From Neelides folsomi (lineage: Eukaryota; Arthropoda; Collembola; Neelipleona; Neelidae), in contig JAQGBZ010000010.1 in assembly GCA_034687125.1 (NCBI GenBank), forward strand, positions 372,001-436,000: a DNA stretch of 64,000 bases, in the 5' to 3' direction. The position numbers and the translations under genes were made by a program. This document shows, one piece after another, positions 10,671 through 34,600 of this stretch. The number at the start of each line of letters is the position of its first letter. The first letter of the stretch is position 1. The notes under the pieces are model-generated. The model saw nothing but the letters and a program-made list of their open reading frames with translations. It was not told where the DNA came from and searched no databases.

Positions 10671-13600
10671 CTATTCGTATAGCATAAATATTAATAATCT
10701 TGTATATTTTAACAAATTAACTTTAACACCGTCAGTTTTACTTTGAATGTATGATACATCCACTGCCTCCGCAAATATAATTATGCTGTGTATGCTTTCG
10801 AATAAAAAGATAATTTATCTGCAATATTGAGAATATGAATAATAATTCTTCTATAAAAAGTATTTACATTGGTTCTTTATGTGCATTTGAGCAATAATGG
10901 CTTTGAGACGAAACATAAACGATATTTACAGAAAGGAGAAATAGCGACTCAGGTATAAATTAAATAATTAAGAGGTAAAAAGCAGGCGGGTTTTTGAATA
11001 CTTACTGAGTAGGACGAGAATACAAACAATAAGTGCAATGATGAAATCGGCAGAAGTAGTAATAATCCCCGACGGCAACACCACCAACTCACAGTCTTGA
11101 CCAGAATAAGCTCTCGGACAAACGCAGGTATAAAGGCGTTCATCTTCATGGTTGTAACAAGAACCGCCGTTTTGGCACGGTTTCTCATCCTCACACTCGT
11201 TGATGTCTTGACACTCCAAGAGAACTGCTCGAGAACCCTTACGACATCTAAACCATTCAGGCCATTGCAAAAATAATGCAAAAATTATAAACTCATTCCC
11301 CTTCCATTCATTGCACATGAGGAAAACAAAGAAAGGAAACGGAAAACAATCAAAAAGAAAATACAAACAATAAAGCCCAACTGACAATTAATGACATTAA
11401 AAGCATTTTGAAGCGTAAGCTGTAAGCCAAAAGCATTCCTTCTGACGGTCCACCTCTTCTTTCTAATATTAATTTCCTTACTAAGGATGATAAGTAGGCA
11501 GACAAGAATAGCAGCGAGAGCTCCCATGCTTAAAGTCAGGATTTGTCCCTCTTGGTACAATTCACAATTTTGACCCCAGTAGCCCGGCGGACACTCGCAG
11601 TAATAACGGTAGGGAACTTCTCGATTTGAACATACGCCGCCGTTCAAACAAGGATTCTCGTTGCATTCGTTCTTATCCTCGCAGCGTTTCTCATCTGGGC
11701 TCATTACCGTTCCCTCTCCACAACTTTACACATCAGAAATTAGTTAGTGAACTGCATATTTTCAATTGGACTAAATTATTTAGACAGGACTAACTCAAAA
11801 AGGGCCTGCCAAAAAATATTGTAAAATTAACATTTGGCCATTATGAAAAATTTCAATTAATGATTGGTCAAGTTAAGGCTGATAAAAAGATTCCCATTCT
11901 TGTTATTAACAGTGAACCAAATTCCAAACCAGATAAGATTTCATTAACAGGCTCTCCCTAAGCTAGTCCTGGAACTACTTAAAGAATTAGTAAAGATTCG
12001 AAAGTTTCAAGTTTTAAATATTTTGATTAATCACATCAATCAGTTAAATTTCCAACTAAATAAAGTTGAAAAGCTCAATTTTTGTAATAAAATTAAAAAG
12101 TTTACTTACGCGCACTCGTACTCATTCCAGAGATCAACACATTCAAATGGTGGAGGACAAATCACATTGGCACAAGGTTTATTGGAAATGCAATTCTGAG
12201 CCAAATTCCTCGCCATAGTCGCCTGACCCCATTGCGTTCCATTCAGAGCTGGAGGAAGGGGAAGATGTTTCCCTTCGAGCCGAATATCATCCAAACATCC
12301 TTTACAGACAAAATCATATTATAAGAAGGTATTCTAAATCTTGTGATCTTGACTATGAAAATATTATAACAACCTTTTTGATAATCAGCATAAACTTCAA
12401 ATGATCGATGTCCCGTGTATTCAGCCTTTCCTCCGGCATAAACTCCTTCTTGTTTATCAACCATCATCCATTGATGTCCTTCGAACTTAAACGTCTCATT
12501 GTACTTTCGCCCTTCTCCACCATCAAGTTCCAATATAGCGACTGATCCAAATCTCGAAACCTATAATAAAACCGAAATGCCATTAGATTATTTCAAAATA
12601 TTATTTCAACAAGAGCATGTAATAATATCAATCTCATTGATTGTTTACCTTCGCAGAATGCCATTGGCCATCATCAACTGGAACATAAGAAAGCCATAAA
12701 TTCTGCTCTTCTGTCTTCATGCTGTTAAGGTTAAAACGGAAGCGAAGTCTGCTATCTTTAATCTCAAGTATTCCATATTCTCTGTTATGTTGGTCAGAAA
12801 TTCTGAAGAGCTCTCCATGAACTTCCCTTGTTCTAAATCGTATTTGAATGAGTGTGGTGAATCGATCCGGTTCGAATGAAAGTGCGTATTTGACGTAGCT
12901 TTGTTGTTTGAAAGAAGTTGGGACAGTTGGTACTGTGCAGCTAAGTCCCATCCATCCAGGCTTGCACTCGCACCTCGGCTCATTGTAACTTCCAACACAC
13001 ATTCCATGTTCAGAACACGAACGGAGAAGATTATTTCCAAGACAGAGATCTTCAATGGGAAGACAACCGCCTGGACTCTTGAGTCTTGAATGTCCAGGAT
13101 TTGCAAGATCATACAGCTAAAAACAAAATAAATGTTTTTGTATAAATTGCTAATTAGAATTCATAATTAAATACCAAATTAATTCACAATTAAAAATTAT
13201 TTCTCATTTGCATCAAAACAATTTTTTACCTTGCTGTTGTGAATAAGATTTCTGATGCATCCTTCGAAAGATTTCGTAGTGGGCATGTATCTCCATAAGA
13301 AGAGACTAGGATCGAATTGTTCAATGTACATTCCTCCGATTTGAAGAGGAGTGTTCACATTGAGATATTCATTGAAAGCCGGGATCTCTCCTTTAGCAAT
13401 GCAATATGAACCATCGAAATTACTAGGGCTTCCATCATCCGCCTCGTTCACTCTCCCTGATGTGCAAAGGTCAACGACCATCCGGACATTCTAAAATAAC
13501 ATTTCATTTAGCAATTTCAAACTTCACTCTTATGAGTCAAGTTGAGATAATTATGACAGTGAAGTAACCTGAGTATCCCAGAAGATATCAATTCTGTGCC

Positions 13601-16600
13601 ATTCTCCATTAGCCAAACTTCCGTTCGTCCTTACTCGAAGTTCGAGTGTGCCGGAACCAAAGTCGATGAGAAGTCGCGGCTCGCCTTTCTCAAGTTCCAA
13701 AGAGATGAAATCGGAAATGATTATTTCCTCTGGTTCAGGAGCCACTAAGGGGCCATTGTAGAGCAATAAACCCTCGTCTCGCTTTGTAATAAACTCCATG
13801 CTCAAATGAGATTCTTCACACATTTCGAGTGGTGGATACCAAGCAAAGTCGTTGGATTTGAATGTTCTGCTCGAAATTTGACATCTTGGACCATCATGAC
13901 CCCGGGGACAAGCACACCTTCAAATTCACATTTATTACTTTCAATTCTCCTTATTTCCTGATTTGAGTCTTCAATTACACCTTAAGTGGTAATGTTAGGA
14001 AAGAAATCTATTTATATGTAAAATTGAGGTACTTACATTGGTCCTGATTTGCTTTCAATACAGCGACCGCCATTAAAGCATTCGAACTTCCTGCACGAGT
14101 CTTTTTCCTTGTCTGTGAAGTTTCGAGCTCCACACATACATTCCGCAACCGTTTCAATCCGAACTCCCACCAATGACGTTTTGTTTGCGTTGACCGTGTA
14201 GGGAAGTGTGCTGATATCGAATGAGTTCGTACATGAGCCTTCACAAGCCTTGTTTTCATATAAACATTCGTCGATTCCAACCATTGTGATATTGATGCCA
14301 ACGTCTCTTTCGATCTGAAATGAATCAATATTTTTAATTGACATAAAAAATATATAAAAACTATTAATAATGTTGTCCTAATATTTAACGCTAACTAATT
14401 TTGTGTTTTTTTTTGTTATAATTAGAATTCTAGACATTTGAATCACCACCAACTAAAACCGCAGTCTCCGGTCGACCATATCAAGTATCCAATTAAAGCA
14501 AAAACATTTGAATAGTGAGGTGTTTTACCTACATAGCTATTTTTGTTTGTATTTTTTGATGCTTAATCAGAATTATACAAGGTAATCAGAAATAGTGAGG
14601 AAACGAAAGTTAACTAGTTATAAATAAAAATTAGTCTGAGTTGTAAATCAAAAAAATGAACATAGTAATGTTGATTTTTCTTTGGTTAATATTCACATTA
14701 AAGGTAAAATCGATTTCAGGACATAATAATGAAGAGACCTTTGAAGAAATTCGTAAGTGTTATTTTAAATTAATTATATTATTAATTATTAAAGTACATT
14801 TTTTCAAATGTAATTCTAGAGGATAAAAGAGAAAATTTAAGATGGGGCAGAAATGTGAATTCTAACGAAATTGATAACGAAATTGGCGATTATGAAGATG
14901 AAGTTGACAATGATATAATCTTATTTAGAAAGCCTGCATTACAACGACCACGTACTCTTATAAGATGGGGAGGTTAAAAACAAATGTGTCAATAATTATA
15001 AACATTCGTGATATGCATGATCAATGATGTACTAGTGTATTTATATTTATAGGATTCTCTGCTATTTGTTAACCAAACATTTTATGTTTTAATGTTTTAT
15101 CTTGAATAAATATTTGCGCACAAACAAATTGAGAAAATATTGATTAATTGTAAGTTAATTACCTCTTCACGGTGCAAAAGGACGATTCCGTTCATCTTCA
15201 CAGCTTTGAAATAGGGAGAATTGTGAGCTGCGAAACGAACATCGGTAATTGGTGGTCTTCTCTGTTTGGTTTGTACACTGAAGATGTCAACTTTTGACTC
15301 GTCTATTCCAAGAATCATGGAAAGCTTTGTACGGAACTTTTGAGCTTTACTTTTTACTACTGACTGAGTCTGCAAATTGAATAAACTAATTAGCTTTGAC
15401 GCTCCTTCATAAAGATTGTAAATAAAATAGCGCAATATCACTAATAAATATACCCGGTAGTCCCATATTCTTATAAAGTCCTCGTCTGAAATTCCATGAA
15501 TTCGGATCGAGCCAGAGTTAATAACAGCATCATGAGGAATTTCCTTCACAATTACTGTCACGTTCGCGGCAATTCCAAGTTGAGTGTGATATCGGTCGAA
15601 AACTTTAAACTCCAACTCGTATCTGAATTTAAGAAGGAAATGATGATAAATTGGGTGAAAACGTAAACTTTTCTTACTAAACATTTACTCTATAAAGATT
15701 CAACATTTACTCCATAAAGATTCTTTAAAGAACTGTGGGAAATGTGCAACCCAACACATTCTCATCAAATGAAGGAGAATGAGCATAAAAAGTAATATGG
15801 TTTGATATTATTAAGATATGGTGAACTTACATTCCAGAGCTCGTGTCTGCCTTCATTGTAATCATGCCCGACTCTTCATCGAGAGCAAATCTGGAATTCG
15901 GCTGGTCAGGATTTCCCCAGTAGAACTTTTTATCAGGCAAGTCCCAGTCGTCGAGATCGTACACATAAACTCGCCCAATCTCCACGTCCGGGTTCGATCC
16001 CTGTGAGAGAAATCCTATTTAAGTACCGTGGAATAATTTCCCCATAAAAGAAGGCTCTCGGTCTATAACACCCGCGTCGGCTGAAGAGCTTCACCAACTC
16101 CTTACCATGTAATTATAAACGAGTATCTCCTTCGATCCCGGCTGCATTTTGTTGTCATTAATATCCCCAATGATGACGGTGAGAGTGGATGTGCCAGACA
16201 TTGCAGGATTTCCTGAGTCCTTGATCACAATGGGGACTAAAAACTCCTTCCTTTGTTCTCGATCAAACATTCGGAGTGAGGAGACGATCGCCATCCCATC
16301 GCCGTTTGCTCCCTCTGAAAATGCAGAAAAAGAATTGAAGAAAACACAAGAGCCTTTTTTAACTTTATGTGCAATCTACTTCCTTCCATTTAAGCCCTTT
16401 CCTATTTTCCCTCCCCAGCCTCTTTAAACATTAATTTTAGTCAAGGGGGCCTCGTGAGGAAATGCGGCCTTTATGAAAAGATAGGAAATCTCATTAATTT
16501 AACGAAGGAAAGAAGATTATAAAAGGAGTTCAAACATTGGAAACCCATTTGCCTCCTTCAGCTATTTTCCAAGAATAAAAAAATGAAGAGCTTGGCTCTT

Positions 16601-19600: not shown

Positions 19601-22600
19601 GTACTTTGTGTTATATGTAAAAATCAGTTCATTTGCAGTAAAACACTTCATGCGTAAAATAATGCACAAAAATCATGAAGCTCGTGAACAAAATAAAATA
19701 AAAAATTGTATTAAAATAAGATCATCATAAAATTAGAAATAGGGAAATGTGAAAAATATCAAACTTTTCTGTAGTCGGAGTCAAATATGACTTAATATTC
19801 ATTCATTGGGTAAATATTAATCACGTTGTTAGTTGATTGATACAGATTTTGAAGATAGGAAATTAATGAAAATACCTTTAACAACTTAAGAGGCAACGTT
19901 CCAGAATATTCTTCAGCAATTTCAGCGGTGTAAATAGACTGACTAAAAACAGGTGGCAAGTCGTTCACATCATTGATGCGAATCACAACTGTGGTTTCAT
20001 TCTCATTCAAACTGTCCGATGCAACCAACGTCAAATCATACTGAAATCAACAAGGGTAAAAACAAAAAGATAAAGTGCAGGAAAATAAAATAAAGCCATG
20101 CTTCGAATAAATCATAGAATTTCATACGAGTACCAACTCTCTTATGAAATGTAATAAACAAAACTCTTAAATATTATCCAATAAAACTAATAATAAAATA
20201 TGTTATGATACACTTTACTATTACCTACTAATATATCATAAATTCGTCATTTCGTTTTGTGATAAAATAATAACATTAAATTAAATCTAAAATAAAGTTG
20301 AGTATCCTTATAAAATATCTACAATTAAGTACAAGTAAATTAAAATTTTCATGGACTATAACAAGAATATAAAAGTTTAATGCCAACAAGTAAGATAAAA
20401 GTTGATCATCTCCTCTTCCCACAAAACTCATTATTCAGCCCAAAAAGCACTTCATTAAATTAACCGCCCGTACAAATACACGTAGAACCGTCAAGGATTA
20501 ATGAGCGGAATGAGTTAATGACAAATACTCACTATTTAAATCTTAATCTTAACAGTTTTCAAACAATGGACTCCGGCCCATTTAATACCATTGAGTAAGG
20601 AAGGAACGATTGAAAAAACTCATTGAGAATATTAAGGGAATAATGTGGGAGTGATAAAGGAAATGTAAAGCTCCTTAACTCAAGTGGTCGAGAATAAGTT
20701 GGCAATTTAAAAGATTGAAATTGTCCCATTCTACCTTCCGGCCCCTTCATTCTGCATTAGCTGAAGTGAGGGAAGACGTATAAGGATAAAATAAACCTTC
20801 ATTAGCATCAAATGATACAAAGCTCCCTTCAAGATTAAAACCAGGAACCAAAAAGAAATAAAACTGTTGAAGCTGAAGTGGCTTCTTTGAGCATCATCTT
20901 TATATCTCCATTTCAATTATTTCCTCCTTTTCTCTCCTTTAAAATGGGAAGGAAGGAGCCATTTTGGAATCTCTTCAAACTTCAAGAACAATCCGCATTA
21001 AAGGAGAAACATAAATTGAGAAAAGTTTGGTAAAGTGAGGTCATCCTATCTAATACCCATATAAAAGAATATTATTGAGAAAGTTTGCCCATAAAGATAA
21101 GTTAGTTCATTTAACATGATAATTCCATGTTAGAGATAAGAAAAGGTTAATTCAAGATATTGACCATATTGAGCCCTAAAATATCACCAGAGAATAATAA
21201 AAAAGGAAAAAGATAAGATTAATGAGATGAGGTGCAGAGTGAAAGCAGCATGCAAACAATCTTATAGTGGTAGCATTTCCAATATAAAGGTAAGTGTGGA
21301 GTAAGTACGAGTGAATGTAGAGAAACGATGCTGAAAATGGTGCGATTTAAAAGGAAAATAAAGTGTAAGTTTTCCACTCAAAAGCAAGCATGGGATTGAG
21401 GAGGAATTGTTATTTTGGGAGACTCAAGAACTTTCTTTGTCTTGAGGAAGTAAAGTAACCTGAAGAACTCGTTTTGGAAGATTCCTATCGTCCTCCTCTG
21501 TTATCTGGGTCTCATATGTTGGGCGGTCGAAGACGGGCGGATTGTCGTTCACGTCTTTCACGTGAATGACGACCGTTGTCGAATTCTCATTCTTGTTGTC
21601 GGATGCAGAGAGGCGAAGCTCGTACTGAACAAGAACTTATTACTAATTCGAATATTACCAGACTCGATAAATCCCAAATCCCGCTTGTCCCGATATCCGG
21701 TGAAACTATCTTAGGATAGTTTTACATAAATTATTCGAATATTCGAATGGGCAGACATTTTATATTCTTGACTTTCTGAATAATAACGATAAATACAAAG
21801 TGCACCTTTTTAACTTTCTCCGTCTGACCGATAGAACTCAAAGTGTCTAAGAATTTTCACATTTCTTGGAATGAGAAATATCAATTTTGTTGAAGAAACT
21901 CTTTTACATTTTTTGAAGAAAATGTAAAAAAAATCTTAAAAGCACTTTGGAAAGTAGTAACTAAAAATTTGTAAGTAGTCAGAGAACTTTTCAATAAAAT
22001 ATTTTGAAAATATATGAGAATAAACGCCCCGCTCTTGAAAAAACATTTCGCAAAACATTAATATGGTATTACACAGATAATATTGATTTTCCCGAAGGTT
22101 TTTATACGTTCTCGTACTAATATAAAAATTATCAATCTAACAAGAAGAAGTTAGACACTAACAGAGGAAGTTAATGTTAATGAAAAAGGCTGTCTATTTT
22201 TAAAATGTGTGCGTAGAATATAATACCCAGTGCATTATGTAATATTAGACTTGCTACACACAATGTCTTTTTCTAACATAGTCGATTAAAGATTCTTAGG
22301 TACACAAATAAAACGTAATATCTTCTGTTATTAATTTCCTCAAAATATGATTAATACTTATGTAGTTATATTGACTGAAAAACTTACGCGTTTTCTCGTC
22401 TCATAATCGAGTGGGCCTGCAACGTAAATTGCTCCTGTCATATTCTTTACAGCAAATGCTCCACCGGTGTTTCCCTTTGTAATCTCGTATCGGATTCTTG
22501 AAGCTAAAACAGAGAAGAAAATAATCAGCTTCAATTAATTTTGTGATTATTTTGTAAGAGGATCTTGTTTAAACTATTTATAGTTCAATCTTATTATTAT

Positions 22601-31600: not shown

Positions 31601-34600
31601 TCATCTCGTCTATATATCGTATAAAATCTACAAATCAATCATTCACACAAATTCACAACTATCATCTACTAAAAAGTTTAAAAAAGTTGTTAGCAGATAA
31701 AAAGACGTAGAAAACAAAAATGTCATTTTCCAATTTCAAATTGGTCAAAAATCCAAAATCCCATGCACTGTTGTTCAAAAGTTAGGGTGACAAAAAACTC
31801 GATGCTATTTTTTAGTTTCGCCTTTATGGGGTATTTAATAATATAACTAACGTTAAGTAAAATATAGCTAAATGTAAGATTAAGTAAATTACAACTATTT
31901 AATACTAAACGTAATAGCTAACTCTTACCGATGTAAGGTTAAGTAAAAAATATAATTATTCTATATTTTATTATGTAATCGGTATACTTTAAGTGCACTA
32001 CCAGCACTAAAATTGTGTAAAAAATTTCGAATAAAGTAAATTTTCCTTTAAAATTAAATTTTACATGAAGATTTAAGGAGTAAAGTTATTATGTCTTTAC
32101 AGGTAGATTGAAATTATAAAGAAATTGAATAAACTGGTCATATTTACTAATGTTGTATAAATTAAGCTCTTCATCTTCAAGAAGAACTTTCGTCTTTGGA
32201 GTCAATAAAACTAGCAGGGAATAAGATGGGTCCGCGACATTAAGAGTAATTTAACGAAAATAAATGGACGGCAGAAGGGGTTATTTGGCAAGAAGGAAAG
32301 TCCTCTGGATAACATAATCAAATTATACCTTTGCCTTTCTCTTTAATTGCGGGTCGTAAATGGCGAGAAAAGTGGGATCGCTCTTTTATCTACTACATTT
32401 ACTCTTCAAAAGACGCATTACATCATATCCTTCCTATCTCTAAATGTAATCATGTAGTCGCATACAAATTTCCCTTGCCACCCATTCTCATGATGAACTT
32501 TATTTTCATAGCCGTTGGTGGATACTTTATTGGAATAAATTAAAGAGCGTCTTTATCTGCTGATAAGCAGATTATCTCCTTATGCTACTTAAATATACCG
32601 ATTACAATTGTTTTAATCATTAGTTATATCACTATTTAATAATTATTAATTTCTTATGTGGGTAAGTGATTATTTGTTCTAAGCACTATGTCTAAAACTA
32701 CTAAACACTATGTCTAAAATTATAGCTATGTATAGTAAATATTTGTTATATTTTGTAAAATAATTCAAAAGTTATAATGGTACTAAAGTTAAGTTGTGGC
32801 GTTGTGGTCGAAGAATCTCAAAATATCGAGTCAAAATAAAAGACCCAAAAAACAGTTCAAGATCTTTTCAAAAATCGCGAGCCGTACATGTAAAATTGTC
32901 ATGTACGAAAAAGTCAGTAAAATCTCATCTGCACTATTAATACACACTATTACCTATTGTTAAGGCTAATTACAACATGACATGACGAGCAATCACGATC
33001 ACAGCATACAAACTACATTTGTCAATTAATTTCAACTCAGCCATCAACCCTTTTCAAAAATTGATTTTGAAGAGTACAAATGAGGTGAATTCATGACTTG
33101 AATTTTAAATTAAAATTTATAAATTGAAACAGAACATAAATGAATTGTTAAGGTCTCGGCTGAGTTGATTTTGGAGAGATTGGTGAACTCTTTATGAGTC
33201 CAATGTCCTCATCTCCCAAGGATCGTTTGTAAGGTGTTTGACGTGGCGGACCGACCTGGCTTTAACCGACACCACTTTAGCTCCTACAGGCATGTTCTCC
33301 TTCACATGAATCGGCCCATAGACCACTTGGTCCCAGACGGGGGGATTATTCGCTCGATCAACTACATCAATTTGAACTTCGACTGTCCGGGAGAGAGCGG
33401 GGAATCCTTTATCTTGAGCTATGGCCTCCAGCTTGTACGACTCCCGCTAGTAAAGTTAGTCAACCCCCACTTCATTATTATTTTATACCATTTGGTTGTT
33501 GCAATCCTTCAGATACTTTCCCCTTTAGTACGCTTCATTCTACCTCTGTGTATTCTAAACCCCTTAAATTAATCTTTGTAGAAAATACATAAATACATAC
33601 TTAATCCTTCATTCAATTCCCTGATACAACATTTAATATTTAATTAAGCTAATGCTTAATCAACAATTATTGCAAAACATTGAAAGCAATCCGTTTCCTA
33701 TTATTTTTAAATTATATGACACAAATATTTATATCTATTACACAATATGTAATATTTAAAAAGTATGCATCTTATCTTAATTATGTTAGAATTAATAGTA
33801 GTTTCGTAGTTTTCCTAACGGAGAAATATAAATTAAAATGACCATTTAATTCTAATTGTGTACCGTCACCTTTGAAAGTGTGATTTGAAACAGTGCATCG
33901 GCTTGGTTCTTTGTTTATTAATTCGACACTTTCTTTTACCATGAAACGTGTAGCGAAAATGAAACTTTGAAGTAGCAAAGAATAATACGAAGGTGATTAG
34001 AGAGAATATTACGTCTGCAGAATGAGTTGCAGAAGTAGAAGTGATTTATAATGAGAGAAGAAGAGAAACACACAAACCTTGCTTTCACAGAAGTGACAAC
34101 AGTACCAACAGTGACATTTTCGCGGATGAAAATTGGGCCGTAAGTTGCCTGGTCCCAAATTGGCGGTTTGTTGTTTCGATCAACGACGTCAAGTTCAACA
34201 TCCACAATAGCACTCAAGCCCACGAGTCCCTTGTCGGACGCTTTTACTTCCAAGCGATACTTATCCCGCTATGGCAAAATACATTCCTCTCGTACTTTAT
34301 TATATATTTAAAAATCATATTCATCGCAATGCAATTACTCTTCAAATTACTCATCCAAATTAAGTACTTCAAAAATTCTAATTCTATGTAAATCTCGATT
34401 AAAAATTCATTCAGACTAGGGCCCATTGGGCAAAATTGGTTCAAAAATTTGTTTTCTACTACCAACTATTTTCTTTGACATTCTCATTATTCAAAATTGG
34501 CTATCTATCCAAATCTTCATTAATTTAATAGTTATTATCCTAAACTACAAAATGTACCAAAGGATTATCCAAAGATTAAAACCTCCTTATAGTGTCCTTC

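What the first reader, a model, noticed from the sequence alone, without database searches (positions are those of the whole stretch)
14656..14977. Nested two-exon gene for a secreted RW-amide-type peptide precursor inside CadN
A complete small gene lies antisense in an 848-nt CadN intron. It has a start codon, a strong signal peptide, a GT-AG intron that keeps the frame, a KR-ENLRWG-R cassette, an acidic spacer, an RK site, a second IRWG motif, a stop and AATAAA. Two peptides with the same R-W-G ending in an 84-residue secreted protein are hard to explain by chance. I know of no arthropod family with exactly this layout. The ending recalls fly sNPF (LRW) and the cnidarian LRWamides, which may be convergence.
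Basis: partly seen in the sequence, partly recalled or inferred. Interest (0 to 1): 0.88.

Follow-up and report, generated by a model that had tools for sequence, protein, structure and literature searches.

The report
Possible peptide-hormone gene inside cadherin intron
A small two-exon gene that probably makes a secreted, neuropeptide-like precursor appears to lie backwards inside an intron of a cell-adhesion gene in a small animal genome, but it has not been shown to be expressed or conserved.

Summary
The anatomy is real. On the plus strand, exon 1 (14656-14752), a 67-nt GTAAGT...TAG intron (14753-14819) and exon 2 (14820-14977) encode 84 residues: a hydrophobic leader, KR-ENLRWG-R, an acidic spacer and a C-terminal TLIRWGG-stop. 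The frame lies inside an 848-nt intron (14315-15162) of a minus-strand CadN-like cadherin.

Chance is unlikely in this window: 120 Mb of simulated non-coding DNA gave no match with a leader exon. My estimate is about 3e-4 per 64 kb, but about 0.4 per genome. Exon 2's codon score exceeds those of 107 of 107 non-coding open segments; the whole frame's does not stand out.

Corrections: the two motifs would not give the same mature ending (-RW-amide versus -RWG-amide), and the RK site is followed by proline. The mitochondrial gene order points to a pancrustacean. The genome has separate sNPF-like and MIP-like genes, so this is probably neither orthologue. It lacks the luqin cysteine pair.

No second copy, family match or printed ENLRW peptide was found in the searches made; expression and relatives could not be examined. 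Best reading: an orphan amidated-peptide precursor yielding ENLRW-amide (0.58).

The parts
14656..14752 (+). exon 1: ATG, hydrophobic leader [19 protein letters not shown], start of propeptide
14753..14819 (+). 67-nt intron, GTAAGT...TTCTAG, keeps frame
   Evidence: the sNPF-like exon pair of the same genome is split by a 71-nt GTAAGT...AG intron
14820..14977 (+). exon 2: ...[11 protein letters not shown], acidic spacer, [17 protein letters not shown], stop
   Evidence: +0.117 per codon, above 107 of 107 non-coding stop-free segments of at least 40 codons (max 0.084) and above 4 of 23 CadN exon pieces
14825..14851 (+). KR-ENLRWG-R cassette (expected mature ENLRW-amide)
   Evidence: of 49 true [LF]RWGR frames read genome-wide, the only one reached by a leader exon
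14954..14977 (+). TLIRWGG-stop, second RWG motif at the C-terminus (expected RWG-amide if processed)
   Evidence: shares the 10-mer TAAGATGGGG with the first motif, its only two plus-strand places in the window
15105..15110 (+). AATAAA, possible polyadenylation signal before the CadN exon at 15163
   Evidence: one of two AATAAA in the intron, uninformative by itself
14315..15162 (-). host CadN-like intron (848 nt, boundaries read by hand)
   Evidence: a crude splice model gave 86-386 nt for the other 16 introns it placed in 10.2-18.7 kb and 785 nt for this one, with a different acceptor

Best explanation
A real, small protein-coding gene nested antisense in a CadN-like intron. It encodes a secreted prepropeptide that is cleaved after KR and at the following Arg, trimmed by carboxypeptidase and amidated to release ENLRW-amide, which would act through a G-protein-coupled receptor in the nervous or endocrine system. 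The C-terminal TLIRWGG may yield a second, RWG-amide peptide by monobasic cleavage after QRPR, or may be an inert tail. Shown: the anatomy and its rarity. Inferred: transcription, secretion, processing, receptor and role.
For: Complete spliced ORF with leader, KR and G-R amidation cassette and acidic spacer. 21 general doublets in 120 Mb of simulated non-coding DNA, 0 with a leader exon; with leader rates of 2.4-2.8% that is about 3e-4 per 64 kb. Exon 2 codon score above 107 of 107 non-coding segments. Plus-strand GC skew of 0.32 over the gene, against 0.07 and -0.15 for the CadN exons on either side (sliding values). Of 49 true [LF]RWGR frames read, only this one has a leader exon. The host intron was the longest of the 17 that a crude model placed in this part.
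Against: No second copy in its own genome at E up to 10 (that search scores only the best candidates), no Pfam or PDB match beyond chance level. Whole-CDS codon score is not distinctive: 13 of 107 non-coding segments equal or exceed it, and exon 1 is negative. The codon controls are largely the same sequences that trained the score. Signal-peptide score borderline, with two lysines at the end of the hydrophobic stretch. RK is followed by Pro, and the second motif has a different expected amidated end. About 0.4 such patterns are expected per genome under the null, so a scan of many windows would sometimes meet one by chance; the pattern was chosen after the fact. No transcript or relative was available.
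Confidence: 0.58

Rival explanations
1. Chance ORF: an A+T-rich CadN intron that happens to contain a hydrophobic ATG frame, a good GTAAGT/TAG pair and two RWG codon runs; not transcribed from the plus strand.
For: About 0.4 such patterns expected per 75 Mb genome under my null; motif chosen post hoc; exon 1 codon score negative and whole CDS undistinguished; no homologue; AATAAA and TATA-like box uninformative.
Against: Only about 3e-4 expected in a 64-kb window; exon 2 codon score above 107 of 107 controls; 1 of 49 RWGR frames read has a leader exon; plus-strand skew.
Confidence: 0.27
2. Real gene for a small secreted protein that is not a neuropeptide precursor (gland, cuticle or defence peptide); RWG motifs incidental.
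For: Leader and small size alone suit many secreted proteins; the second motif and RK-P are poor processing signals (processing rules recalled).
Against: KR-x5-G-R is a standard amidation cassette (recalled); no cysteines and an acidic spacer suit a prepropeptide; repeated RWG.
Confidence: 0.1
3. A highly diverged paralogue of a known RW/RF-amide family, most likely sNPF-type or luqin/RYamide-type.
For: Some sNPF/prolactin-releasing and luqin/RYamide peptides end in RW-amide (PMC7270403 passage; PMC7041311 passages); annelid LFRWamides are linked to the mollusc sNPF gene (PMC6389622 passages). My RYamide patterns gave no clear RYamide gene: 0 places for the strict one; 27 places against 20 for the control for the loose one, of which one was read in context.
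Against: A separate sNPF-like exon pair in the genome. No cysteines in the 84 residues, whereas luqin precursors typically carry a C-terminal pair.
Confidence: 0.05

Closest known systems
Anthozoan LRWamides (Antho-RWamide I/II)
   Same: Short peptide ending LRW-amide (a few IRW or MRW), one per precursor (PMC9545775 passages)
   Different: In 38 of 39 cnidarian precursors the peptide directly follows the signal sequence; here a propeptide and KR come between. No ground for homology.
Short neuropeptide F (arthropod sNPF; RLRW-amide members of flies recalled)
   Same: R-W-amide ending; small precursor with a KR cassette
   Different: This genome has its own exon pair RKSQR-SSSNSLRLRFG-KR (likeness to insect sNPF recalled); candidate lacks LRLR[FWY]
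Annelid LFRWamides, linked to mollusc LFRFamide/sNPF genes (PMC6389622 passages)
   Same: RW-amide ending
   Different: L-F-R-W core instead of N-L-R-W; different phylum; precursors not compared here
Luqin / RYamide family
   Same: RW-amide ending occurs in ambulacrarian luqins (PMC7041311 passages)
   Different: No C-terminal two-cysteine motif in the candidate
MIP / allatostatin-B (Wamides)
   Same: C-terminal tryptophan amide
   Different: No W-x6-W; three W-x6-WGKR copies lie at C34:72000-72323 of the same genome
Kinins (FxxWG-amide, recalled)
   Same: The C-terminal RWGG would also give -WG-amide
   Different: Leu in place of Phe; no downstream basic site

Membership tests
Amidated neuropeptide precursor (general) | Signal peptide | tested here: inconclusive
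   Hydrophobic leader present; recalled weight matrix gives 3.55/3.3, borderline; no SignalP available
Amidated neuropeptide precursor (general) | Peptide bounded by a dibasic site and G-[KR] | tested here: met
   KR-ENLRWG-R
Amidated neuropeptide precursor (general) | Expression and processed peptide | not testable with these tools
   No RNA-seq or peptidomics
sNPF | LRLR[FWY]-amide core (recalled) | tested here: not met
   ENLRW / TLIRW; LRLRFGKR found elsewhere
sNPF | Activates sNPF receptor | not testable with these tools
   none
Luqin/RYamide | C-terminal pair of cysteines, usually ten residues apart | tested here: not met
   0 cysteines in 84 aa; feature is 'typical', from PMC7041311 passages
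MIP/AST-B | W-x6-W-amide (recalled) | tested here: not met
   No upstream Trp at that spacing; such a gene elsewhere
Anthozoan LRWamide | Peptide directly after the signal sequence (38 of 39 precursors) | tested here: not met
   Roughly 14-22 residues, ending in KR, lie between the possible leader ends and ENLRW (comparison)
Kinin | FxxWG-amide (recalled) | tested here: not met
   LIRWGG has Leu at the Phe position

The most novel reading that the evidence does not exclude
A lineage-specific pancrustacean LRW-amide neuropeptide, born or transposed inside a CadN intron, unrelated by descent to cnidarian LRWamides and to sNPF, with its own receptor.
Probability: 0.35. Interest if true: 0.55.

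Novelty: new member of a known kind. Interest (0 to 1): 0.4.

Why it matters
If expressed, it would be an orphan amidated peptide outside the hexapod/crustacean families that I could compare it with, and a signalling gene nested in an adhesion gene. Nesting itself is ordinary: intronic genes are about 6% of Drosophila genes (PMC3786989 abstract). The case also shows that a short precursor can be proposed from raw sequence, and that mature ends must be worked out before two motifs are called the same.

Tried and rejected
Mite and tardigrade origin, first guessed from genome size, were dropped: the mitochondrial contig C742 (15,157 bp) has trnL(TAA) between COX1 and COX2 and, as far as genes were called, the ancestral pancrustacean order (the meaning of the order is recalled; trnN was not called and rRNAs were not looked for). 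Species not identified.

sNPF orthology was the leading idea until a separate sNPF-like exon pair was found. The first pattern (Arg after Gly) gave 4 places against 26 for the reversed control, none reading LRLRFG. The second gave 24 against 31; five of the 24 were read in context. Two of these read LRLRFGK: C180 is the sNPF-like exon; C162 lies in a stop-rich frame and looks like chance. C219:5715 reads RKPGFRLRWGK-stop; no leader exon reaches it within the 601 bases held.

LRWG[R] places: 111 against 78 for the reversed control. 100 were listed; 88 were fetched and read (12 listed not fetched, 11 unlisted). 49 of 88 were true [LF]RWGR frames; four others besides the candidate have a dibasic site within 10 aa, one other (L061) has a second RWG, no other has a leader exon. 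KR..xRWGK (x coded by HTN) gave 4 places against 5 for the control; the one read (C210, KRLLLRWGK) has no leader exon in the 627 bases held.

RYamide patterns: 0 places against 1, and 27 against 20; kinin pattern 13 against 3. Four of these 40 places were read (one RYamide, three kinin) and none convinced me; the kinin excess suggests that a kinin gene may be among the unread ones.

Literature: 'ENLRW' gave 2 papers, neither on neuropeptides by title; 'LRWG' with 'neuropeptide' gave 0; RWamide lists (listings and starts of abstracts) showed no arthropod LRWamide; the main text of PMC4770511 on non-pterygote hexapods holds neither 'LRW' nor 'RWamide'. The library lacks most subscription papers and I saw no supplements. 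Searches on mites, tardigrades and Milnesium did not bear on the result; one on nested genes (10 of 66 listed) led to PMC3786989. PMC8557429 names a nemertean GGRWamide only. Rfam gave 0 matches in the window; the bacterial promoter scan is not informative here; no direct repeats of 12 or more were reported in the host intron.

AlphaFold was not used: the spliced protein is not a contiguous reading of the window.

Full report
Observation. An in-frame TAA at 14644-14646 precedes ATG 14656. Exon 1 ends at 14752, a GTAAGT...TTCTAG intron covers 14753-14819, and exon 2 runs to the TAA at 14975-14977. The 84-residue product is [84 protein letters not shown].

Host. The frame and the AATAAA lie in an 848-nt intron (14315-15162, boundaries read by hand) of a minus-strand cadherin. 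The exons on both sides match Pfam Ig_Shg (DE-cadherin Ig-like domain), at profile positions 26-111 and 100-150. Of the ten window segments scanned, others matched cadherin, EGF and laminin G models, some below the curated cut-off, and two matched nothing. One cadherin segment matched 144 PDB sequences, of which the best 60 were listed, cadherins of many kinds with a Neural-cadherin among them. 'CadN-like' is therefore a fair name, not a proven orthology. A crude splice model placed 17 introns between 10.2 and 18.7 kb; the other 16 measured 86-386 nt and this was the longest, at 785 nt with a different acceptor from mine. Several placements are doubtful, and longer introns seem to lie further upstream in the gene (open frames).

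Organism. The assembly holds 75.1 Mb in 840 contigs. Its mitochondrial contig carries, as far as called, the ancestral pancrustacean order, with trnL(TAA) between COX1 and COX2 (meaning recalled). It is probably an insect, springtail or crustacean; the species is unknown and the 18S search did not complete.

Is it more than chance? I trained a third-order Markov model on about 12 kb of the window's introns and simulated 120 Mb. The general pattern (dibasic, 1-10 residues, xyG, basic, then the same xyG 10-70 residues on, followed by G, a basic residue or stop) occurred 21 times, none reached by a leader-bearing ATG exon; the RWG doublet occurred 0 times; a single dibasic..RWG[KR] occurred 16 times, none with a leader exon. 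The real window, both strands, gave this one place. A leader exon reaches a random open position in 193 of 8000 trials in window introns (all unspliced) and 225 of 8000 in fetched loci (30 spliced). Multiplying gives about 3e-4 per 64-kb window and about 0.4 per genome. The pattern was defined after seeing the finding, so these are optimistic. In the real genome, 88 of 111 LRWG[R] places were read: 49 are true frames; of these, 5 (candidate included) have a dibasic site within 10 residues, 2 (candidate included) a second RWG, and 1, the candidate, a leader exon.

Coding potential. Codon log-odds trained on hand-chosen window coding pieces against introns give exon 2 +0.117 per codon, above 107 of 107 non-coding stop-free segments (maximum 0.084) and above 4 of 23 CadN exon pieces. 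Exon 1 is -0.27, as a leader rich in Ile/Leu/Phe may be, and the whole CDS -0.025, which 13 of 107 non-coding segments equal or exceed. The controls are largely the sequences that trained the score. GC skew on the plus strand is 0.32 over the gene, 0.07 over the CadN exon piece 15163-15374 and -0.15 over 14036-14314; sliding windows give 0.30-0.44 over 14500-14999 but also +0.12 to +0.15 at 15100-15399.

What the peptides would be. KR-ENLRWG-R gives ENLRW-amide by the usual steps (convertase, carboxypeptidase, amidating enzyme; recalled). The second motif ends RWGG-stop; amidation uses one glycine, so its product would end RWG-amide. The RK before it is followed by proline, which disfavours cleavage (recalled); cleavage after QRPR is possible. 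So 'same ending' applies to the precursor, not to the mature products.

Relatives. No other copy was found in the assembly at E up to 10, in a search that scores only the best candidates; Pfam and PDB gave only chance-level matches. The genome has an sNPF-like exon pair...RKSQR-SSSNSLRLRFG-KR..., split by a 71-nt GTAAGT...AG intron, at C180:102642-102748 and 102820-102889 (the start of the first exon is not determined), and W-x6-WGKR copies at C34:72000-72323 that look like a MIP gene. No clear RYamide gene was found by pattern, with one of 27 loose places read; the candidate has no cysteines, whereas luqin precursors typically have a C-terminal pair (PMC7041311 passages). Cnidarian LRWamides follow the signal sequence directly in 38 of 39 precursors (PMC9545775 passages), unlike this one. 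[quoted passage not shown]

Verdict. Probably a real nested precursor gene (about 0.73 as a gene, 0.58 as an amidated-peptide precursor outside known families). Evidence comes from one genome only. Intronic genes are common (PMC3786989 abstract), so the nesting adds little surprise. The finding is a well-formed orphan neuropeptide candidate, not a new kind of system.

Noticed in passing
window 33195-33446 / 33939-34268; 19795-20046 / 21427-21636; 10971-11387 / 11288-11725 (minus): Three pairs of similar neighbouring CadN segments (37 of 64, 31 of 57 and 33 of 68 aligned residues identical) look like mutually exclusive exons; the last pair carries an EGF-like stretch and a hydrophobic segment. 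This recalls the alternative exon sets of fly CadN (recalled).
   Followed up: partly
G000:C180:102642-102889 (L100): sNPF-like exon pair RKSQR-SSSNSLRLRFG-KR with a 71-nt GTAAGT intron.
   Followed up: partly
G000:C34:72000-72323 (L109): MIP/allatostatin-B-like gene with three W-x6-WGKR copies.
   Followed up: partly
G000:C219:5715-5735 (L102): RK-PGFRLRWG-K-stop in an open frame, no leader exon within the bases held; possibly chance.
   Followed up: partly
G000:C210:81080-81106 (L104): KRLLLRWGK in an open frame, no leader exon within the bases held.
   Followed up: partly
G000:C742 (15,157 bp): Mitochondrial contig with, as far as called, the ancestral pancrustacean gene order; trnN not called, rRNAs not looked for.
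   Followed up: partly
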